A stretch of DNA of 64,000 nucleotides from Gammaproteobacteria bacterium (GTDB lineage: Bacteria > Pseudomonadota > Gammaproteobacteria > Coxiellales > Coxiellaceae): assembly GCA_023266215.1 (NCBI GenBank), contig JAHFRQ010000007.1, positions 1 through 64,000 on the forward strand, written 5' to 3'. A program made the position numbers and the translations under genes. Below, piece after piece: positions 42,632-59,538 of the stretch (its first letter is position 1; every line of letters starts with the position of its first letter). A model generated the notes under the pieces. The model saw only the letters and a list, made by a program, of their open reading frames with translations. It did no database searches and was not told the origin of the DNA.

Positions 42632-42667
42632 GCGAGTGTCCCATTTTTGGCTATGCAAAATGCATTA
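42632..42667. repeat. Island motif GTGTCCCATTTTTGGCTA, copy a
   Basis: GCGAGTGTCCCATTTTTGGC followed by TATGCAAAATGCATTA, the full 36-bp form shared with 50519-50554. It lies 8 bp after the coaBC stop, at the left edge of the island zone. Confidence 0.75.
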
Positions 42668-42890: not shown

Positions 42891-42900
42891 TTCCCCATAA

Positions 42901-42987
42901 AACAAAGGCCTCCGAAGAGGCCTTGTACCCTACCACAGAGTGATAGGGGTGGTAGACGTAATTATAGCACAATATTTTTTAATGCAA
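42901..42987 (-). ncRNA. Orphan copy 1 of the NYN-type two-hairpin RNA with promoter
   Basis: Nearly identical to 51221-51307: -35 TTGCAT (42987-42982), 15 nt, TATAAT (42966-42961), hairpin 1 (42955-42930, CTACCAC/GTGGTAG), terminator hairpin 2 (42924-42905, AAGGCCTC TTCG GAGGCCTT) and a T-rich tail. No NYN gene follows, only a fragment. Confidence 0.65.
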
Positions 42988-43000
42988 AGCGGAATATATC

Positions 43001-43053
43001 AAAAAACCCGCCGCGGTGCGCATTGTTAAGAGGCGTTGCGGGTGTTGTTGAAT
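43001..43053 (-). ncRNA. abiF-like hairpin RNA, copy A
   Basis: Minus-strand CAACAACACCCGC ... GCGGGTTTTTT; outer stem ACCCGC/GCGGGT (43043 to 43006) then a T run. The loop conserves AACGCCTCTTAACAATGCGC. One base differs from the other copies (CCGCGG for CCGGGG on the plus strand). No gene follows directly. Confidence 0.6.
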
Positions 43054-43085
43054 GGTTTAACAAAAAATTTCATTTCGTTAAAGAT

Positions 43086-43127
43086 TGCCGATGACGCGAC
43101 TCGAACGCACGACCTACTGATTACGAA
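43086..43127 (-). repeat. Proximal att copy: 42-bp 3' fragment of tRNA-Thr
   Basis: Identical to 59466-59507, the 3' part of the tRNA-Thr gene from the discriminator to the anticodon loop. It then diverges. Same orientation as the tRNA. Marks the left end of the composite island. Confidence 0.85.
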
Positions 43128-43240
43128 ACATATAAAGGCGAATTATAACAATAAACCACAATAGGCGACAATAACTTTATGCTGTAATTATAGGCAAATC
43201 GTGTTTGTGATGTATTGCGGTGTGTTGTGATGATTTAATT

Positions 43241-43262
43241 GCGAGTGTCCCATTTTTGGCTA
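43241..43262. repeat. Island motif GTGTCCCATTTTTGGCTA, copy b
   Basis: GCGAGTGTCCCATTTTTGGC plus TA, about 115 bp inside the proximal att copy and 20 bp from the stop of the Abi_2 gene. Confidence 0.7.
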
Positions 43263-43282: not shown

Positions 43283-44209
43283 CTAGACTTTCCAAAACGA
43301 ATCAGAAACCCAGTTGTTCTTAAATCCCATTTTTTCAATATTAATTTCACAGTGTTGATTAATGAGACTCAATAGATGGCTGGGCCAGTTGCTGTTGGGT
43401 GAAATGACGTCAAGAAATATTTTTAAAATAGCGGCTTGGGCTGCAAAGCGGGAATTATTATCAAGCTGATCTCGATAGTCATTTGCTATCATGGGCTTTA
43501 ATGTGAATGAACGGCTCCATAATTTACCATGATGCGCACATAGATTTCTGAGATAAGTCAGCGAGTGTAGCCAAGATTGCATGACGCTAAAATTAATATT
43601 GAAATGCTGGCAAATTATCTTTTGATTATTACGATCCGCAAGATTTGCGAAAATCATTGACCAAGTTCCAAGAGACAATACTTCTGCAATCATCCATATC
43701 GCAGGCAATTTTGGTTGAGAATATTTTTTATAATAATGCTGTAAAAATGGCTCACGTTTTTTGTGCTGAATCGTGCCATCCTGCGCTTTATAAAACGTCT
43801 CTTTTTCGATTGTATTGATTAAATCCTGATGTTTAAAATCTTTTAAAAAAAGTTTTTTATCAAGATACCAGTGTGCGCCATATTTTACAGCAAGCTCATT
43901 TGTTATTACTGTTCGAACGGCGATCTCAATTCTTTCAATCGCATCAATAACCAATAGACGCAATTTGCGATCAAACACATAGCAGTCAAGCACCTGCTCA
44001 AAAGTCGAGCCTTGTCGGTATTGTTTTTCATTTCCTGTAGATGGTTCTTCAAATTCAATGCCATATCCGCAAAAACGATAATAGCTAATAAATTGAAGGT
44101 AATGCGCAGCTGCTTGCCTATTTTGGATAATAAGGCCGCGCGAACTTAACAGATCAAGTTGCTTTTCTATGGATAAAGGTAGCTTTTCGAATGTGCTTTG
44201 ATTTCTCAT
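43283..44209 (-). CDS. Abi_2 (AbiD/AbiF)-family abortive infection protein
   Basis: 308 residues of the Abi_2 family, whose members carry a HEPN RNase fold related to that of Cas13. SRGLIIQNRQAAAHYLQFISYYRF at the N-terminus, DRKLRLLVIDAIERIEIAVRT, and the HEPN-type Rx4-6H region SLTYLRNLCAHHGKLWSR are visible. Expected role: RNA cleavage that aborts phage infection. The start codon is 4 nt after the T run of a terminator-like hairpin RNA (44213-44258) and has no Shine-Dalgarno sequence, so expression may depend on that RNA. Known abiF RNA motifs lie in the same position. Confidence 0.88.
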   Translation of the reverse strand: MRNQSTFEKLPLSIEKQLDLLSSRGLIIQNRQAAAHYLQFISYYRFCGYGIEFEEPSTGNEKQYRQGSTFEQVLDCYVFDRKLRLLVIDAIERIEIAVRTVITNELAVKYGAHWYLDKKLFLKDFKHQDLINTIEKETFYKAQDGTIQHKKREPFLQHYYKKYSQPKLPAIWMIAEVLSLGTWSMIFANLADRNNQKIICQHFNINFSVMQSWLHSLTYLRNLCAHHGKLWSRSFTLKPMIANDYRDQLDNNSRFAAQAAILKIFLDVISPNSNWPSHLLSLINQHCEINIEKMGFKNNWVSDSFWKV

Positions 44210-44212
44210 GGG

Positions 44213-44276
44213 TAAAAAAAACCCGCCGGGGTGCGCATTGTTAAGAGGCGTTGCGGGTGTTGTTAAAGAGAGTATA
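44213..44276 (-). ncRNA. abiF-like hairpin RNA, copy B, with promoter, upstream of the Abi_2 gene
   Basis: Minus-strand -10 TATACT (44276-44271), then AACAACACCCGC, conserved loop and GCGGGT (stem 44258 to 44221) followed by seven T bases ending 4 nt before the Abi_2 ATG. Expected short transcript of about 55 nt. Resembles in place and form the abiF RNA motif reported upstream of Abi_2 genes, though I cannot align it to the published model. Confidence 0.65.
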
Positions 44277-44471
44277 ACAAAAATCCACCCTATTGCACCA
44301 GCGTTTTGTGGCTTCCTATTGTTGATTGTTGGGATCGATTGTAACTAGCGAATTAATTTAGCGAAAAATGCGCATATAAGCCAGAAGAATTTACAATTAA
44401 TGCTCATATAACACATTGGATTTTTATATCAGCGACCAAAGATTACGTCAAATTCCGTTGTTAAGTCATTA

Positions 44472-44563
44472 AAAAAACAAAGGCCTCGTGATGAGGCCTT
44501 GTACCCTACCGCAGAACGATAGGGGTGGTAGATGAAATGATAGCACAATATTTTTTAATGCAA
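44472..44563 (-). ncRNA. Orphan copy 3 of the NYN-type two-hairpin RNA
   Basis: Diverged copy: -35 TTGCAT (44563-44558), 15 nt, TATCAT (44542-44537), hairpin 1 (44531-44506), terminator hairpin 2 (44500-44480) with the GGCCTC/GAGGCC stem kept but the loop changed from TTCG to ATCAC. Conserved stem with changed loop supports a selected RNA structure. No NYN gene follows; the Abi_2 unit lies about 200 bp downstream. Confidence 0.6.
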
Positions 44564-46154: not shown

Positions 46155-46250
46155 AACTAATCACCGCATTGTTTTATTGCTCTATAACCGACCATGACAC
46201 CAACTTCAAAACCCCCTGATCGGACGCATAATACATTAATGCAGCTAAAA

Positions 46251-46393
46251 ATCAAATGCCCCCTATTGGGTGTCGCCTGATTAGGTGCACATAAGCTTTA
46301 CTAAAAGCATGACAAATAAGCACCCAAATCTTGTAAAATTAGGCAAAAACATTCGAGCTAAGCGTGAATTACGCGGGTTCTCACAGGATGGCT
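46251..46393. repeat. Duplicated promoter and 5' end of the XRE gene (copy in island A)
   Basis: About 143 bp nearly identical to 52295-52437, covering the upstream region with CCTGATTAGG and the first 28 codons of the XRE regulator. After 46393 the sequence is unrelated. Confidence 0.8.
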
Positions 46394-46440
46394 TCCCATT
46401 TAGCCATATATATATTGGCAAGCTCTTCGAGAACTTTTAA
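46309..46440 (+). pseudogene. Truncated XRE-family regulator
   Basis: The frame opens with MTNKHPNLVKLGKNIRAKRE as in the intact regulator at 52353 and breaks off after SQDGF, continuing with unrelated residues to a stop (44 codons). The helix-turn-helix is incomplete. It overlaps the 3' end of the convergent gene at 46381. Confidence 0.75.
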
Positions 46441-49130: not shown

Positions 49131-49159
49131 TTGCGAGCTTCCCATTTTTGGCTGTGCTA
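49131..49159. repeat. Island motif GTGTCCCATTTTTGGCTA, copy c (variant)
   Basis: TTGCGAGCTTCCCATTTTTG then GCTGTGCTA: two or three changes from the consensus. It abuts the stop codon of the DUF1016 gene at 49157. Confidence 0.6.
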
Positions 49160-50254
49160 TTTTTTCGGTTTAAGTATTTTAAGCTCTCGATTTAATTCTG
49201 CTGTCAATTCTTCTTCTGTTGGCAAGTGTAATTGATATTTGCTTGCAAAAATTTGTTTGGCTTTATCGCCTAATAAATAATTCGCCATACCTGTTCTTTT
49301 TTCTGTGCAAAGTACCAATCCAATGGTTGGATTATCGCCTTCTGTTAGGCATTCTCTATCGTAGTAATTAACGTACAATAGCATTTGACCCAAATCCGCA
49401 TGCGTCAATTCATTCATTTTTAAATCAATAATAATATGGCATTTAAGCACGGCATGATAAAAAATAAGGTCGGCATAATAATGCTTACCATCAAGCGTTA
49501 AACGTTTTTGTCTTGCTACGAACGCAAAGCCGCTGCCCAATTCCAATAAAAAATGCTGTAAATTATTTATTAACGCTTCTTCAAGTTTTGTTTCAGTTAG
49601 CTGATGCGCCTCGGGGATATTTAAAAACTCCAATACAAATGGGTCTTTAATTGCGTCTTCAGGTTTTGAAATCTCTTGTCCTTGATGCGCCAATTTTAAT
49701 AACCCAGCTTTATCTTTGCTTTTTGCGAGTCGATCGAAAAGCAGGCTGTTGATTTGTCTCTCAAGTTGTCGGGCGGACCAGCGATTTTTCGCGGCTTCTA
49801 CCTCATAAAATCGCCTTGCTTCTGTTCGTGAAACTCGCATCAACGCTCTGTAATGAGACCAGGATAAATTGGGGTTAAATTTAGGGGTTTTCAATTCCTC
49901 ACGCACTGTGTGAGGAATTTGCTTGCTCTGCCCTGAAGAGTAAATCAAATAAAATTTTCTAATATACTCCATGTTTGTTAAACCAAAACCCACGCCAAAC
50001 TCATGAGTTAATTTTTCTGAAACAGTTTTTAATATTGATTTTCCGTACCCAGCTTTTTTCAACCCTTTCTGTTCTTCCTCAACAATATAATTTCCAATGT
50101 GCCAATACGCTTTAACCATTGTAGTATCAACTGCCCGAACAATATTTGTTCGAGCGGTGCGAATAACCAGTGCAATACGTTCATATAACGGATCAGACGG
50201 TTGATTTGGTTTTGTAATGGTCGATGATAATTTTTCTGATTTTTTCTTTTTCAT
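49157..50254 (-). CDS. DUF1016-family PD-(D/E)XK nuclease (YhcG-like), island copy
   Basis: 365 residues from the ATG at 50254. DUF1016 domain (about 20-190: VDTTMVKAYWHIGNYIVEEEQ, LTHEFGVGFGLTNMEYIRKFY, NLSWSHYRALMRV) and PD-(D/E)XK domain (about 215-340: FVARQKRLTLDGKHYYADLIF, IIDLKMNELTHADLGQMLLY, TIGLVLCTEK). Only distantly similar to the chromosomal DUF1016 gene at 22343. It is preceded 22 bp upstream by a terminator-like hairpin RNA (50276-50329), as is the Abi_2 gene. Longer starts would translate that hairpin. Defence-type nuclease by context. Confidence 0.88.
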   Translation of the reverse strand: MKKKKSEKLSSTITKPNQPSDPLYERIALVIRTARTNIVRAVDTTMVKAYWHIGNYIVEEEQKGLKKAGYGKSILKTVSEKLTHEFGVGFGLTNMEYIRKFYLIYSSGQSKQIPHTVREELKTPKFNPNLSWSHYRALMRVSRTEARRFYEVEAAKNRWSARQLERQINSLLFDRLAKSKDKAGLLKLAHQGQEISKPEDAIKDPFVLEFLNIPEAHQLTETKLEEALINNLQHFLLELGSGFAFVARQKRLTLDGKHYYADLIFYHAVLKCHIIIDLKMNELTHADLGQMLLYVNYYDRECLTEGDNPTIGLVLCTEKRTGMANYLLGDKAKQIFASKYQLHLPTEEELTAELNRELKILKPKK

Positions 50255-50275: not shown

Positions 50276-50329
50276 AAAAAAACCCGCCGGGGTGCGCATT
50301 GTTAAGAGGCGTTGCGGGTGTTGTTGAAT
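50276..50329 (-). ncRNA. abiF-like hairpin RNA, copy C, upstream of the DUF1016 gene
   Basis: Same sequence as copy B: ACCCGC/GCGGGT stem (50319 to 50282) and T run; the DUF1016 ATG is about 22 nt beyond. Upstream TAAACT is a weak -10. Confidence 0.6.
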
Positions 50330-50363
50330 GTAGTTTAACAAAAAATTTCATTTCATGAAAGAT

Positions 50364-50405
50364 TGCCGATGACGCGACTCGAACGCACGACCTACTGATT
50401 ACGAA
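50364..50405 (-). repeat. Middle att copy: 42-bp 3' fragment of tRNA-Thr
   Basis: Identical to 43086-43127 and 59466-59507. It separates islands A and B and is embedded in a roughly 265-bp duplication (50274-50542 versus 42999-43262). Confidence 0.85.
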
Positions 50406-50518
50406 ACATATCAAGACGAATTATAACAATAAACCACAATAGGCGACAATAACTTTATGCTGTAATTATAGGCAAATCGTGTTTGTGATGTATTGCGGTG
50501 TGTTGTGATGATTTATGT

Positions 50519-50554
50519 GCGAGTGTCCCATTTTTGGCTATGCAAAATGCATTA
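50519..50554. repeat. Island motif GTGTCCCATTTTTGGCTA, copy d
   Basis: Full 36-bp form as at 42632; its end overlaps the stop codon of the NYN gene at 50552. Confidence 0.75.
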
Positions 50555-51202
50555 CCATTTTTCAGGTTTGTGAATATGGGTTCCTGGTATCGGACTAGGC
50601 AGTTGAGAATCTTTTAAAACAGAAGGACGTATTATTTTCATAAAATCTTTATGCTGCATCAACACCGTGCTGGGATGACGATGCCCTGGAATAATTAAGC
50701 CGATTTTTTTATTGTGTTCTGTTTTTGCAAATTTTAATGCTTCTGCAATATCACTATCATTCGAAACTAGCACGGCGCAATCATATCGATCATGCCAAGC
50801 GTCATTTAATATGTGCAACGCAAGATTAACGTCAGAACCTTTTTCTTTTGTATCAATTGCTGTCACAAAACTCGGGCAGCCTTTCGGTGGATTATCCACT
50901 TTGACTTTTACTTTATGTGTTAAAAAATGACCGTAATAGATTTTAACCAGTGGGCAGTGCTTTTCTAGTGCATTAAGATAGGCATCTTGCCTATATGGCG
51001 CATCAGAATCATTGTTTCTTGCGGAAATGCGTGCAGTGAAATATTTAATTTGTGTAATTACGTGATGCTCACTTAGTAAATTTTTAAATAACTTTTCTAA
51101 ATCGAGCCACTTAAAATCAGTTTTTTTAAGCGCGCCGAAATATAAATTGAACCCATCAATATAAACAATCGTTCTGGGCTTGTTGCCACCATGGTTATTC
51201 AC
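50552..51202 (-). CDS. NYN-domain (LabA/DUF88-like) putative ribonuclease, island copy
   Basis: 216 residues. NYN domain over most of the protein: TIVYIDGFNLYFGALKK (first Asp), KGSDVNLALHILNDAW (second acidic centre), CAVLVSNDSDIAEALKFA (third), and IGLIIPGH. The short C-terminal tail is unrecognised. I start at a GTG with AGGAA 9 nt upstream, because longer frames read through the two-hairpin RNA. That RNA and its terminator stand directly before the gene, the same arrangement as the NYN gene at 3501, though the hairpin sequences differ. Probable metal-dependent RNase; toxin or defence role is inferred. Confidence 0.82.
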   Translation of the reverse strand: MNNHGGNKPRTIVYIDGFNLYFGALKKTDFKWLDLEKLFKNLLSEHHVITQIKYFTARISARNNDSDAPYRQDAYLNALEKHCPLVKIYYGHFLTHKVKVKVDNPPKGCPSFVTAIDTKEKGSDVNLALHILNDAWHDRYDCAVLVSNDSDIAEALKFAKTEHNKKIGLIIPGHRHPSTVLMQHKDFMKIIRPSVLKDSQLPSPIPGTHIHKPEKW

Positions 51203-51215
51203 GCGAAAATTCCTA

Positions 51216-51307
51216 TAAAAAACAAAGGCCTCCGAAGAGGCCTTGTACCCTACCACAGAGTGATAGGGGTGGTAGACGTAATTATAGCACAATATTTTTT
51301 AATGCAA
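51216..51307 (-). ncRNA. NYN-type two-hairpin RNA with promoter, in front of the island NYN gene
   Basis: Promoter TTGCAT (51307-51302), 15 nt, TATAAT (51286-51281). Expected RNA start near 51275: hairpin 1 (51275-51250, CTACCAC/GTGGTAG), then GGTAC, terminator hairpin 2 (51244-51225, AAGGCCTC TTCG GAGGCCTT) and TTTGTTTTTT. The GTG of the NYN gene follows about 15 nt later. Hairpin 1 has an alternative pairing (ACCCCTA with TAGGGT). Confidence 0.7.
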
Positions 51308-51383: not shown

Positions 51384-51800
51384 TTAATAATTACTTTCTG
51401 TTGTATTTGCAGTCGTTCCGTTTGAAAAAGTTGTTGTGTTACCACCATTGTAATTTGGGCTTGTCGTGGCAGTATCACCATTTGAAGATGTTGATGTATA
51501 TCCGCCATTGTAATTGGGTCTCGTAGTCACTGTAGTACCGTTTGAATAAGTCGTTGCAGATCCACCATTATAATCTGGACGTGTATTTGCCGTAGTGCCG
51601 TTTGAGTATGTAGTATTATATCCCCCATTATAATCTGACGATGTGTTTGCAGTAGTGCCATTTGAGTAAGTCGTAGTGCTCCCGCCATTATAATTTGATG
51701 ATGTAGTGGCGGTCGTGCCATCGCTGTAGGTCGTCGTTATGTTAGCCATCGCAGAAACACTTGCTACCAATAAGCTTGTCGCTAGTAAAATATTTTTCAT
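51384..51800 (-). CDS. Secreted protein made of 20-residue tandem repeats
   Basis: 138 residues. Signal peptide (MKNILLATSLLVASVSAMA) then about six repeats of the type YSNGTTANTxxxYNGGxTTT, i.e. 60-bp DNA repeats. The Asn/Gly/Thr/Tyr-rich repeats suggest a beta-helical or elongated surface or periplasmic protein; Tyr and Asn spacing is regular. GGAGGGG ribosome site before the ATG at 51800. Repeat number could vary by slippage. Family not recognised. Confidence 0.65.
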   Translation of the reverse strand: MKNILLATSLLVASVSAMANITTTYSDGTTATTSSNYNGGSTTTYSNGTTANTSSDYNGGYNTTYSNGTTANTRPDYNGGSATTYSNGTTVTTRPNYNGGYTSTSSNGDTATTSPNYNGGNTTTFSNGTTANTTESNY

Positions 51801-51848
51801 ACCCCTCCGGTTTAAATTAATTTTTTTGAGCAATATGTAACACTAAAA

Positions 51849-52244: not shown

Positions 52245-52352
52245 ATACAAACCCTCTATTCAGACGCGCTCATCATACCCTAACTCCAGAAAATATCAAA
52301 TACCCCTTATTGGGTGTCGCCTGATTAGGTGCACATAAGCTTTACTAAAAGC

Positions 52353-52604
52353 ATGACAAATAAGCACCCAAATCTTGTAAAATTAGGCAAAAACATTCGA
52401 GCGAAGCGTGAATTACGCGGGTTCTCACAAGATGGCTTTGCGGCTGAAGCAGGCCTGGGTCGCACATACTATGGCCGGATTGAGCGCGGCGAACAAAATT
52501 TGTCCATTCAGAATTTAATACGCATCGCGATTACTTTAAAAATTGAAGTTGGCGACTTAATACCCCCTGTCAGCAGTTTGAAAAAGGCCGCTTCTCGCAG
52601 TTAA
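52353..52604 (+). CDS. XRE-family helix-turn-helix regulator
   Basis: 83 residues. A single Cro/C1-type HTH covers residues about 10-65 (LGKNIRAKRELRGFSQDGFA, AEAGLGRTYYGRIERGEQNL), like short controller proteins. The upstream region has CCTGATTAGG and GGTGCAC-type dyads that could be its operator. It is the only plus-strand gene in the core of island B and probably controls the element. The first part of this gene is duplicated in island A (46251-46393). Confidence 0.85.
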   Translation: MTNKHPNLVKLGKNIRAKRELRGFSQDGFAAEAGLGRTYYGRIERGEQNLSIQNLIRIAITLKIEVGDLIPPVSSLKKAASRS

Positions 52605-52819: not shown

Positions 52820-53288
52820 TGCTTGCCTCGCATAATAGTTGGTTTGCAGGTTGTTCTAAATTTTCAGAATTATTAATCTGCTGATTGACTGCGTTATTTT
52901 GTTGTTTAATAAATGTTGTTCGCTTCGGGTTTTTTAATTCGATTAAAGCCAGCAATGTTTTTCTGCACCCATTTTGAGCACGCATTGCTATATCAGAAAA
53001 CGCTTGAATATTTTGCATTGAATTGCCGTCACCAATTTGCGACAGCATGAGATTAGAAAACGCATTGAGCGTGTTAGCTTGCGACATAAGCATGGCTTCC
53101 ACTTCTTCCATATTGCCACTACTTACCTTTTCGGAACTATCGCTTAGCCTGCGAACCAATGTACCAAAATCCAAACTTCCCTTATAAAGGGCATCAATTG
53201 TGTGGGCTGCGGTTATATTAGGGACGGTGCAATCGATCGCAGCGTTAATTGCTTTGTTCTTATTTTCGCTGTTTCTATTTTCGCTCAT
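52710..53288 (-). CDS. Island/phage-associated hypothetical protein
   Basis: 192 residues, helical and polar. The segment KNPKRTTFIKQQNNAVNQQI and the preceding AFSDIAMRAQNGCRKTLLAL match uncharacterised proteins on prophages and islands. Follows the replication protein (4-bp overlap at 53285) and precedes the small basic protein gene. No membrane segment. Function unknown; perhaps part of element replication or stability. Confidence 0.6.
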   Translation of the reverse strand: MSENRNSENKNKAINAAIDCTVPNITAAHTIDALYKGSLDFGTLVRRLSDSSEKVSSGNMEEVEAMLMSQANTLNAFSNLMLSQIGDGNSMQNIQAFSDIAMRAQNGCRKTLLALIELKNPKRTTFIKQQNNAVNQQINNSENLEQPANQLLCEASNATLDFGRTKEAISINSNMETLGEIYGCPNHSGEKN

Positions 53289-55132
53289 TGAGCAACTCCT
53301 AGTTTTAAAGTTTCATTTATACAACTGTAATCAACATACTGAACAGGTCGCGCATTTTCACTAGGCAAATATTGCAATGATTTTTGATCAAAGCAAAAAC
53401 CAAGCTTCCCCTCCCAATCGCCGTTGCGTTGCTTGTCACATTTCCACAGCACATCAAAATGTTTTATTTTTTCTTCTTGCGCTTTAGATAATTTAACACC
53501 TTGAGCTTGAAGATTTTTTATCTCTTCTTTTTCTTTGTTTCGCCAGATTGCAAAACAATTATCGGCTAAGTCAGATATCGCGCCGGTGCCCTTATTGTCT
53601 AATTTACTCGGCGCTTGCGTTTCATCTGCGCTTTTACGAGGATGAACAACGATATGCACATGACAATTATGCTGATTTTTAAAATCGCACAGCTGTTCCA
53701 TTAATGCCTTTTGTGCTTTGTAATCGTCCTCTGCAATATCTAGTTTCATAAATGAATCAATTACAAAAACATCAATGCCATATCGTTGTCTTGCATAAAG
53801 AAACACCTCAAGCAAACGCTTTGATTTTGCAGTCCCAACCAAGCTAAATAACCACAGACAACTGCTATACCACTTATTAATAACTCGAATATAATCAGGC
53901 GATGGCTTTTCAAGTGCGCTCGCTTGTCGTGTCAACCGTTCAAGCAAACGCTTTGGTTTTAATTCCAAACTTGCAATACAAACACGCGCACCCGATTTCA
54001 TGAGATGCAAAACAAGATGCCCTAAAAACTGACTCTTGCCATGCCCATTAATACCAGTCCAAACCGATAACTCATCAGGACGAAACAATATTTTACCTTT
54101 TGCTTTATCCCATGGTGGATCATAACCAATAAAAGTATTTTCACCTGGGTAAAACATTTCAATCACGTCATCGACAAATAATCCGGCACTTTTTAATTCT
54201 TCTGGATCAAGTGTGCGCGCATTATCAAAACAAACCTGCATTGCTTCTCGCATCACATTCGCTTGCAAACACGCATTAGGGTCTTTGTACGGCAGCTCTA
54301 CAATACGACAACGATATCGACCCAGACGCTCAATTAATTCTGCAATAGCCTTTTTACCTTCGTCATCAGAATCAAAGCAAAGATATATCTCATCAAACAT
54401 CGCAAGCCGATCAAATTCATACTCGAGCCATTTTTGTTTAGCGCCACCACCTGCACCAAACGGAACAGACAGCGCCGCAAAACCATATTGATTTAAAGTC
54501 ATGCAATCAATTTCACCCTCGCAAATAATAATTTTGCGTATGTTTTCTGGAATAACATGCCAGCCAAATAAACATGGCTCACAATTTGGTTCAGCGCTGA
54601 TCTGCTTTTTGCCATTCAGTCGATCAAGTCCCAGGTATTTGATCAATATTAATTCGTCATCGCGAAAATAATTAAAAACAATGTCTCGTCCCCGCTCACC
54701 GATTTTAAATCTATCAATAATTTCTGGCGTTAATCTTCTTTCTTCTGTTAGATAACAATAAACTTTTGATGAAACAGATAACTCAAACGATTTTTGCTTT
54801 GGCTTAACAAAATCCTGTGGCGAATAAGCTGCGAAACTCGGGGGCGATATACCCAGGTATTTCGTTGCTTCTTTTATTGCCTCTGCAAGTGTTAAATTTC
54901 GTTTAGCAGCCCATAAACTTAAAAGATCACCGTTCTCACCAGTTGCGAAGTCACAATAAATCCCAGACTTTTCGCCCGATAAATGCACACCAAGCGATTG
55001 TCCTGAGTCGCCATTAATTGAGCCGACGCGCCATTCATTGCCAATTCTCTTACCGTTGGGCAACAAATAGCGTGCTACTTCTTCTGCGCGATTTGAAAGC
55101 ATTTTTGAAATTTCTCTTGCTGTCATCATCAT
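53285..55132 (-). CDS. Toprim/DnaB-like primase-helicase
   Basis: 615 residues. N-terminal region with CDFATGENGDLLSLWA, then a Toprim domain (about 195-290: IIICEGEIDCMTLNQYG with the catalytic Glu, IYLCFDSDDEGKKA with DxD), then a RecA-like helicase domain (about 330-590: TGINGHGKSQFLGHLVLHLM as Walker A, DVFVIDSFMKLD as Walker B). Related to the T7 gp4 type primase-helicase. It would prime and unwind the excised element. No zinc-finger Cys cluster seen at the N-terminus. Overlaps the upstream gene by 1 bp. Confidence 0.85.
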   Translation of the reverse strand: MMMTAREISKMLSNRAEEVARYLLPNGKRIGNEWRVGSINGDSGQSLGVHLSGEKSGIYCDFATGENGDLLSLWAAKRNLTLAEAIKEATKYLGISPPSFAAYSPQDFVKPKQKSFELSVSSKVYCYLTEERRLTPEIIDRFKIGERGRDIVFNYFRDDELILIKYLGLDRLNGKKQISAEPNCEPCLFGWHVIPENIRKIIICEGEIDCMTLNQYGFAALSVPFGAGGGAKQKWLEYEFDRLAMFDEIYLCFDSDDEGKKAIAELIERLGRYRCRIVELPYKDPNACLQANVMREAMQVCFDNARTLDPEELKSAGLFVDDVIEMFYPGENTFIGYDPPWDKAKGKILFRPDELSVWTGINGHGKSQFLGHLVLHLMKSGARVCIASLELKPKRLLERLTRQASALEKPSPDYIRVINKWYSSCLWLFSLVGTAKSKRLLEVFLYARQRYGIDVFVIDSFMKLDIAEDDYKAQKALMEQLCDFKNQHNCHVHIVVHPRKSADETQAPSKLDNKGTGAISDLADNCFAIWRNKEKEEIKNLQAQGVKLSKAQEEKIKHFDVLWKCDKQRNGDWEGKLGFCFDQKSLQYLPSENARPVQYVDYSCINETLKLGVAQ

Positions 55133-58203: not shown

Positions 58204-59268
58204 TCATCCTCCAAATATCTTTTCATTCATTCTCGCCACGACTTTACTGGTGTGTGCATCGGACAAATGGGCGTAGCGTTTAACCATTTGCAATGTTTTG
58301 TGTCCTAATATTTCGGCAATTTCAGCAAGGCTTGCACCGTTCATTGCTAAATATGACGCTGCTGAATGTCGAAGATCGTGAAAACGAAAATCATTTATTT
58401 CTGCGCGCCGCAAGGCTGTTTCCCAAGGCGTTGTAAGATCAATTGGTTTATCGAGTGACTTGGCAGGAAAGACAAAATCGCAATGCAATATGCGGATTTT
58501 TGCGTGCTCTTTCATTAATTCAAGCGCTAATGACGTCAACACTAAAACACGACGCTCGCCATTTTTTGTTTCATGTAACGTAATCATGCCGCGCGCTAAA
58601 TCAATGTCGCGCCATTTTAAACTTAGAATTTCCATTTTGCGTGCACCGGTTGATAACGCGAGCACAACAACTTTGTATAAATATTCACTTTCGCTTTGCT
58701 TGCATATTTCTAATAATCGCGATCGTTCCTCATCTGATAAAAAACGCACTCTGCCCCGCGGTTCTTTTAGGCGTGATACTTTTAACACGGGATTTTCGTG
58801 AGACCAGCCCCATTCTTTGACTGAAACAGTAAATAGGTGGCTGAGTATGGCAAGATAGCGATTGACGGTTGCGTTCGTGCGATCACCACGCGTTGTTTTT
58901 CCTTGTGCTAATTTATCGCGGTGCTCTGCAATAATTGAAGGCGATACATCAGATAGAGGCAAGTAACCGATATTGCTCGCCCACCATCGAAGCTGATTTT
59001 TTTGATCCTTCTGTGAATTTTGTTTTTTGGTCAGCAAGACAGATTGAAGATAGCGATCGATTGCTTCTTGCAAAGTGTGCTTTCTTGATTCGACCGTTTT
59101 AAAATGACGGCCTTCGCGAATGGCAGATTCAGTTTGCTGAACCCATTTTTTTGCGTCGGTTAATCTTTTGAATGTTGCCGATTGAGGCGGAAAGCCTCTT
59201 AGCCTTACTCGGACACGATATTGTAACGTGCCATCTATGATCGAATTTCTTTTTTCAATTGTAGCCAT
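58204..59268 (-). CDS. int: Tyrosine integrase of island B
   Basis: 354 residues. N-terminal arm-binding segment (about 1-60), SAM-like core-binding domain (about 65-150), catalytic domain (about 170-345): ALSTGARKMEILSLKW (first Arg), HETKNGERRVLVL (Lys), FHDLRHSAASYLAMNGAS (HxxR), LGHKTLQMVKRYAHL (His, Tyr nucleophile). AGGAG ribosome site. It reads away from the tRNA-Thr gene, 195 bp from it, the standard geometry for tRNA-integrating elements. Expected to use the tRNA 3' end as att site. Confidence 0.95.
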   Translation of the reverse strand: MATIEKRNSIIDGTLQYRVRVRLRGFPPQSATFKRLTDAKKWVQQTESAIREGRHFKTVESRKHTLQEAIDRYLQSVLLTKKQNSQKDQKNQLRWWASNIGYLPLSDVSPSIIAEHRDKLAQGKTTRGDRTNATVNRYLAILSHLFTVSVKEWGWSHENPVLKVSRLKEPRGRVRFLSDEERSRLLEICKQSESEYLYKVVVLALSTGARKMEILSLKWRDIDLARGMITLHETKNGERRVLVLTSLALELMKEHAKIRILHCDFVFPAKSLDKPIDLTTPWETALRRAEINDFRFHDLRHSAASYLAMNGASLAEIAEILGHKTLQMVKRYAHLSDAHTSKVVARMNEKIFGG

Positions 59269-59385: not shown

Positions 59386-59405
59386 AGTGTCCCATTTTTG
59401 GCTAT
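59386..59405. repeat. Island motif GTGTCCCATTTTTGGCTA, copy e
   Basis: AGTGTCCCATTTTTGGCTAT, between the integrase start and the tRNA-Thr 3' end, about 60 bp from the latter. A candidate arm-type integrase site. Confidence 0.65.

Positions 59406-59462: not shown

Positions 59463-59538
<76 letters not shown>

What the first reader, a model, noticed from the sequence alone, without database searches (positions are those of the whole stretch)
43283..44276. Abi_2 (AbiF-like HEPN) gene starting 4 nt after an abiF-like RNA terminator, with no ribosome site
A TATACT promoter, a short conserved hairpin RNA and a seven-T terminator end right at the Abi_2 start codon. Abi_2 genes are known to be associated with a structured RNA (abiF RNA motif), and AbiF proteins share a HEPN fold with Cas13. 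Here the spacing leaves no Shine-Dalgarno site, so translation would require read-through and perhaps processing of the RNA.
Basis: partly seen in the sequence, partly recalled or inferred. Interest (0 to 1): 0.7.

Follow-up and report, generated by a model that had tools for sequence, protein, structure and literature searches.

The report
AbiF toxin island with spare RNA antitoxins
A bacterial self-poisoning defence gene sits right behind the small RNA expected to hold it in check, inside a mobile island with three further copies of that RNA away from the toxin gene; the same RNA is found alone in many phages, which suggests phages may carry it to disarm this defence.

Summary
RF03085 (abiF RNA) matches at 44221-44257(-), 48 bits, just upstream of an Abi_2/AbiF gene (43283-44209) that aligns end to end with solved PbAbiF (8vz6) and keeps the HEPN R-x4-H motif. 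No Shine-Dalgarno lies between terminator and ATG, but that layout recurs elsewhere. This is a known kind of system: an AbiF type III-like toxin with an RNA antitoxin.

The genome has four abiF RNAs, all in this island: two elements in tandem at tRNA-Thr. Copy B has a hairpin identical to A but precedes a DUF1016 nuclease; C precedes no intact gene; D, damaged, lies upstream of an NYN nuclease. None of 23 DUF1016 homologues checked shows the RNA, so these are detached copies.

Detached abiF RNAs are common: 110 of 120 viral-contig matches lack Abi_2, their stems covary, and 7 of 10 named phages examined pass Rfam's cut-off. I infer trans-acting antitoxins or anti-AbiF decoys; this is untested.

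Beside them lies a second structured RNA, R1, with no Rfam match. It precedes NYN genes in several genomes (13 of 18 pairs compensated): a candidate new RNA-toxin pair.

The parts
43283..44209 (-). Abi_2 / AbiF HEPN toxin gene, 308 aa, HEPN motif RNLCAH
   Evidence: Pfam PF07751 E 1.1e-54; PADLOC AbiD E 1.2e-70; 8vz6 PbAbiF E 1.7e-47 over residues 2-307
44221..44257 (-). abiF RNA copy A, directly upstream of Abi_2; followed by eight T and ACCC
   Evidence: RF03085 48 bits
44271..44276 (-). TATACT, -10 of a TGN-extended promoter; no good -35
   Evidence: read from sequence; not listed by the consensus scan
44206..44238 (-). 10-codon frame MRTPAGFFYP opened by the RNA's internal AUG; its TGA overlaps the Abi_2 ATG
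   Evidence: script; translation not shown
50282..50318 (-). abiF RNA copy B, hairpin identical to A, upstream of the DUF1016 gene
   Evidence: RF03085 48 bits; sequences printed
43006..43042 (-). abiF RNA copy C, one base changed, stem kept; no intact gene behind it
   Evidence: RF03085 41.9 bits
51326..51362 (-). abiF RNA copy D, 5' stem arm and promoter lost; upstream of R1 RNA and NYN
   Evidence: RF03085 40.6 bits; poor fold
49157..50254 (-). DUF1016 / YhcG PDDEXK nuclease, PADLOC candidate PDC-S02
50552..51202 (-). NYN-domain nuclease (PADLOC HEC-09), GTG start with AGGA upstream
   Evidence: start read from sequence
51216..51279 (-). R1 RNA: two hairpins, the second an intrinsic terminator, behind a TATAAT promoter; upstream of NYN
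44471..44535 (-). R1 RNA, solo copy between a DUF4136-like gene and abiF copy A
42896..42959 (-). R1 RNA, solo copy behind abiF copy C
43055..43262 (.). 208-nt direct repeat (97% to 50333-50540) that contains the att core
43086..43127 (.). att-like 42-nt copy of the tRNA-Thr 3' end
   Evidence: 100% over 42 nt to 59466-59507
50364..50405 (.). att-like 42-nt copy of the tRNA-Thr 3' end
   Evidence: 100% over 42 nt
59463..59538 (-). tRNA-Thr(CGT), probable integration site
58204..59268 (-). tyrosine integrase next to the tRNA
   Evidence: Pfam Phage_integrase E 2.4e-32
49140..49153 (-). AGCCAAAAATGGGA motif; other copies at 42639-42652, 43248-43261, 50526-50539, 59390-59403
   Evidence: all five exact copies in the genome lie in the island, same strand; reversed control 0

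Best explanation
RNA copy A with the Abi_2 gene is a type III-like toxin-antitoxin and abortive-infection module. A weak extended -10 promoter makes a short hairpin RNA that ends at the T-run just before the gene (inferred). Occasional read-through gives the AbiF mRNA (inferred). AbiF, a homodimeric HEPN RNase (inferred from its PbAbiF relative), is held inactive by bound RNA until phage infection or loss of the RNA frees it (inferred). With no SD, initiation is expected to be rare: either by the hairpin's G-rich 3' arm once it opens, or by coupling to the ATGA-overlapping frame inside the RNA. The island carries detached copies of this RNA. Copy B, identical in the hairpin and with its own -10, should supply the same antitoxin in trans; C and D are decaying. 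They arose by duplication and exchange of cassettes between repeats in tandem tRNA-Thr elements, not as regulators of their neighbours. Shown: parts, family membership, catalytic motif, repeats, identity of A and B. Inferred: transcription, binding, toxicity, trans action, defence.
For: RF03085 over cut-off at four places, none elsewhere in the genome. Abi_2; end-to-end PbAbiF match with R-x4-H aligned. RCd22 acts in cis and in trans and binds AbiF directly in C. difficile (PMC12373285, abstract and sections 7 and 13). att-like copies of the tRNA-Thr 3' end and an integrase. None of 23 other DUF1016 homologues shows the abiF core upstream. In genome contigs 71 of 116 abiF-pattern sites have Abi_2 directly downstream.
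Against: No expression data. The promoter of A is weak and fails the consensus scan. The hairpin energy is not special. No tool here tests toxicity, binding or trans action. B may be silent: its -10 is TAAACT.
Confidence: 0.65

Rival explanations
1. Copies B, C and D are passive leftovers of recombination between repeats and act, at most, as promoter-terminator spacers.
For: C and D have lost promoter or stem; repeat blocks of 141, 208 and 69 nt cover all copies. L249, labelled as lacking Abi_2, still shows an Abi_2-like fragment behind its RNA (my reading).
Against: B keeps its hairpin letter for letter. Detached abiF RNAs elsewhere keep covarying stems (59 of 65 viral cluster representatives fully paired; 200 re-partnerings give mean 19.4, maximum 28), which passive remnants would not.
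Confidence: 0.25
2. abiF RNAs B and D are real cis partners of the DUF1016 and NYN nucleases: the RNA module was re-used for other toxins.
For: B ends 27 nt before the DUF1016 ATG. In L207 and L234 an abiF RNA directly precedes a RhuM-like gene (RhuM is my reading). L181 precedes an HsdR-like gene (my reading).
Against: 0 of 23 other DUF1016 homologues have the abiF core upstream; NYN genes have their own RNA, R1; copy D has lost its 5' arm.
Confidence: 0.07
3. A Cas13-like RNA-guided nuclease.
For: AbiF is reported to be ancestral to Cas13 (PMC12737573, passages).
Against: Protein of 308 aa with a single R-x4-H motif, match to AbiF 8vz6 only, no guide-like variable part in the RNA.
Confidence: 0.03

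Closest known systems
AbiF/RCd22 of C. difficile phi027 (PMC12373285)
   Same: Abi_2 gene behind an abiF RNA that ends in a terminator; read-through expression
   Different: RCd22 has two abiF motifs and the gene has an RBS (AGGTGA); here each RNA has one motif, no SD, and three extra copies lie apart from the toxin
PbAbiF-AbiFr (PDB 8vz6)
   Same: end-to-end homologue, E 1.7e-47, HEPN R-x4-H
   Different: mobile, multi-copy RNA context; the cryo-EM paper itself was not read
Racr RNA anti-CRISPRs (PMC10651486, passages)
   Same: logic: a solitary copy of a defence system's RNA carried by a phage
   Different: target would be AbiF, not CRISPR-Cas; no functional test; the paper has no mention of AbiF
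ToxIN / CptIN / avcID type III systems (seen in search listings)
   Same: RNA with terminator upstream of a toxin gene, for R1-NYN
   Different: NYN toxin, a single two-hairpin RNA not matched by Rfam

Membership tests
AbiF type III-like toxin-antitoxin | Abi_2 domain protein | tested here: met
AbiF type III-like toxin-antitoxin | HEPN R-x4-H catalytic motif | tested here: met
   RNLCAH aligned to the PbAbiF motif
AbiF type III-like toxin-antitoxin | RF03085 RNA directly upstream | tested here: met
AbiF type III-like toxin-antitoxin | promoter before the RNA, terminator between RNA and gene | tested here: inconclusive
   hairpin plus eight T read from sequence; extended -10 only, not in the consensus scan
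AbiF type III-like toxin-antitoxin | toxicity neutralised by the RNA | not testable with these tools
   needs expression
Cas13 (type VI CRISPR) | two HEPN domains in one large protein with a guide RNA | tested here: not met
   308 aa, one R-x4-H motif; PDB sequence search returns AbiF only
R1-NYN as type III toxin-antitoxin | structured RNA with terminator upstream of the toxin, conserved across genomes | tested here: met
   R1 model matches 12 of 47 NYN loci at E below 1e-10; covariation 0.579 against 0.246 shuffled. Lacking in most distant NYN homologues
R1-NYN as type III toxin-antitoxin | RNA neutralises the toxin | not testable with these tools
   needs expression

The most novel reading that the evidence does not exclude
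The island holds two unrelated RNA-gated nuclease modules, AbiF with abiF RNA and NYN with the undescribed R1 RNA, whose RNAs also exist detached from their toxins. Detached RNAs are functional trans-acting antitoxins: in phages, including lytic T7-like and cyanophages, solo abiF RNAs are RNA-based inhibitors of AbiF, and R1-NYN is a new type III-like toxin-antitoxin family.
Probability: 0.35. Interest if true: 0.87.

Novelty: new variant of a known kind. Interest (0 to 1): 0.6.

Why it matters
AbiF is the reported ancestor of Cas13, and its RNA antitoxin was known mainly beside its toxin. If the many solo abiF RNAs in phages inhibit AbiF, they would be an RNA-only counter-defence, directly testable in lab strains, and would explain why a lytic cyanophage carries an 'abiF sRNA' of unknown role. 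If R1 neutralises NYN nucleases, type III toxin-antitoxins gain a new toxin family.

Tried and rejected
Fold energy as evidence for abiF RNA: rejected, z -0.47 for A and 0.23 for B. DUF1016 plus abiF RNA as a conserved pair: rejected, 0 of 23 others. Co-occurrence of DUF1016, NYN and Abi_2 in L241, and of DUF1016 and Abi_2 in L178: noted, too few to build on. Phage sk1, whose DNA protects another phage from AbiF (Rince 2000, seen only in a reference list): no abiF RNA at the gathering score, so not support. NYN relatives in viral contigs: none confirmed. The RNA's internal AUG as a conserved start: 24 of 73 open in frame into Abi_2, about what frame chance gives, plus 9 of 73 with a stop over the ATG; not compelling. 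Start-codon scripts miscall some starts, so I cite only loci whose letters I read. A tRNA neighbourhood of phage solos: 21 of 110 within 200 nt against 4.5 expected, but only 8 clusters.

Limits. Each script count of Abi_2 uses a profile built here, so very divergent Abi_2 could be missed. The R1 alignment holds 13 sequences that I chose; L297 and L298, which aligned poorly, and hairpins of other kinds upstream of other NYN genes (L269, L274, L307, L309, L311, L312, L314, L320) were left out, which favours covariation. The five strong R1 matches outside that alignment and outside this island have no NYN beside them (0 of 5); this is expected, since NYN-linked places in the same genomes had been taken first by protein, but it means the link rests on the 12 NYN-linked places.

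Full report
WHAT IS THERE. The Abi_2 gene at 43283-44209(-) (Pfam E 1.1e-54; PADLOC AbiD) aligns from residue 2 to 307 with the solved Prevotellaceae AbiF 8vz6, E 1.7e-47, with its RNLCAH in register with RNSCCH. Directly upstream lies abiF RNA RF03085 at 44221-44257, 48 bits against a gathering score of 37. Minus-strand reading: extended -10 TGTTATACT, hairpin, eight T, ACCC, ATG. The consensus promoter scan does not list this promoter. No SD lies between terminator and ATG.

NOT UNIQUE. The same jam of terminator and ATG without SD is seen in L005 and L006, L147, L177, L178, L180, L203, L231 and L261, L175 and L196. In these the only G-rich element at SD distance is the hairpin's own 3' arm. 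In the window the RNA's AUG opens MRTPAGFFYP, whose TGA overlaps the Abi_2 ATG. Both are possible routes for rare translation; neither is shown.

THE ISLAND. Four abiF RNAs lie in the window and none elsewhere in the 2.1-Mb genome. A 42-nt copy of the tRNA-Thr(CGT) 3' end occurs at 43086 and 50364 besides the tRNA at 59463-59538, with an integrase at 58204-59268 and a Toprim/AAA replication protein at 53285-55132. So two elements in tandem, satellite-like in my reading, the second without an integrase found. The motif AGCCAAAAATGGGA has five exact copies in the genome, all here and on one strand. Copy B (50282) has the same hairpin as A and ends 27 nt before the DUF1016 nuclease; C (43006) has one change; D (51326) has lost the 5' arm. 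PADLOC calls DUF1016 PDC-S02 and NYN HEC-09, so three candidate defence genes sit in 8 kb.

ARE B AND D CIS REGULATORS? Of 23 other DUF1016 homologues whose upstream DNA I examined, none has the abiF core. L207 and L234 do have an abiF RNA directly before a RhuM-like gene. I read B as a detached copy that should make the same RNA as A, because the hairpin is identical; RCd22 was shown to act in trans in C. difficile (PMC12373285, abstract and sections 7 and 13 part 1).

DETACHED RNAs ELSEWHERE. Abi_2 directly downstream: viral 4, genome 71. Abi_2 elsewhere in the locus: 0 and 2. None: 110 and 37. Locus end too near: 6 and 6. By clusters of similar flanks, none: viral 65 of 71 clusters, genome 37 of 97. 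In 65 viral cluster representatives 59 have a fully paired 6-nt outer stem; re-partnering the 3' sides gives mean 19.4, maximum 28 in 200. Ten of the 65 hairpins are identical to an Abi_2-linked genome RNA and 14 differ by one base. At the gathering score 11 of 14 viral solo loci pass (L066, L067 and L103 do not), and phage sk1 has none. A BLAST of one solo RNA against named phages listed 55 records; I fetched 10: 7 pass the cut-off (Aeromonas PZL-Ah8, vB_AhaP_PT2 and T7-Ah, all between connector and scaffold genes; Salicola CGphi29; cyanophages S-CREM1 and S-SZBM1, beside tRNAs; Mycobacterium Thibault), Rhizobium Pasto is below at 30.3 bits, and Caulobacter RW and Pseudanabaena Pan2 have no match. 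A tblastn of the window Abi_2 over the phages collection hits 57 records, whose organism names include none of these genera.

INFERENCE. An RNA that neutralises AbiF in trans, kept under stem covariation in phages without AbiF, is most simply a decoy antitoxin, as Racrs are for CRISPR-Cas (PMC10651486, passages). Against this: no test here, and a phage could use the hairpin as a terminator; yet a terminator alone would not need the conserved core. S-CREM1's abiF sRNA is in print with unknown role (PMC9964418 and PMC12197685, passages). My searches show no paper on phage solo abiF RNAs as AbiF inhibitors; the library lacks many journals and the Cell 2025 AbiF/Cas13 paper (recalled, not read).

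A SECOND RNA. The repeat at 51219, 44474 and 42899 is itself a small RNA with promoter and terminator (z -4.1 to -4.7). Upstream of homologues of the NYN gene the same layout appears with different letters. In 13 chosen sequences 13 of 18 pairs have compensatory changes; 91.5% of cells are paired and the covariation score is 0.579, against 74.2% and 0.246 in shuffles, 0 of 500 reaching it. Rfam gives no match to it at E up to 5. In 274 class and 398 phylum genomes R1 has 19 places with E below 1e-6: 12 before NYN, 7 alone, two of these in this window. Of 34 NYN upstream regions 14 have a same-strand terminator-like hairpin and 6 only an opposite-strand one; DUF1016 controls 0 of 26 and 3. My searches for NYN with RNA antitoxins found no such system.

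VERDICT. The given finding is an ordinary AbiF toxin-antitoxin module, correctly seen. Its setting, detached antitoxin RNAs here and in phages and a candidate second RNA-nuclease pair, is what deserves follow-up.

Noticed in passing
window 51216-51279, 44471-44535, 42896-42959 (-); L264, L265, L266, L277, L278, L283, L284, L271, L299, L300, L301: R1, a two-hairpin RNA with strong covariation and no Rfam match, upstream of NYN (HEC-09) nucleases; a candidate new RNA antitoxin-toxin pair.
   Followed up: partly
L268, L270, L279, L280, L302-L304, L306: More distant NYN genes have upstream hairpins that look, by eye, like an RNA pointing away from the gene (A-run before the stem), perhaps a divergent form of the same pairing.
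   Followed up: no
L269, L274, L307, L309, L312: Another hairpin-plus-terminator type (CACCCC...GGGG, then a GC-rich terminator ending TTTTTTCRTTT) upstream of NYN genes.
   Followed up: no
L207:3328-3364, L234:5096-5132: abiF RNA directly upstream of RhuM-like genes in two genomes, without Abi_2.
   Followed up: partly
L241: DUF1016 fragment, NYN, KilA-N-like, RhuM-like and ORF6N-like genes, then abiF RNA and Abi_2, with short repeats between genes, beside a coaBC-like gene as in the window: a cassette-like array in an unrelated genome (gene names partly my reading).
   Followed up: partly
L103, L067, L291 (S-CREM1), L292 (S-SZBM1): Phage solo abiF RNAs, or near matches to them, lie inside or beside tRNA arrays; L067 also has a ROOL RNA.
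   Followed up: partly
window 51384-51833 (-): Tandem 60-nt repeats encode a Thr/Ser/Asn/Tyr-rich repetitive secreted-like protein.
   Followed up: no
window 46247-46394 and 52290-52438: A 149-nt direct repeat, 97% identical, between the two tandem elements.
   Followed up: no
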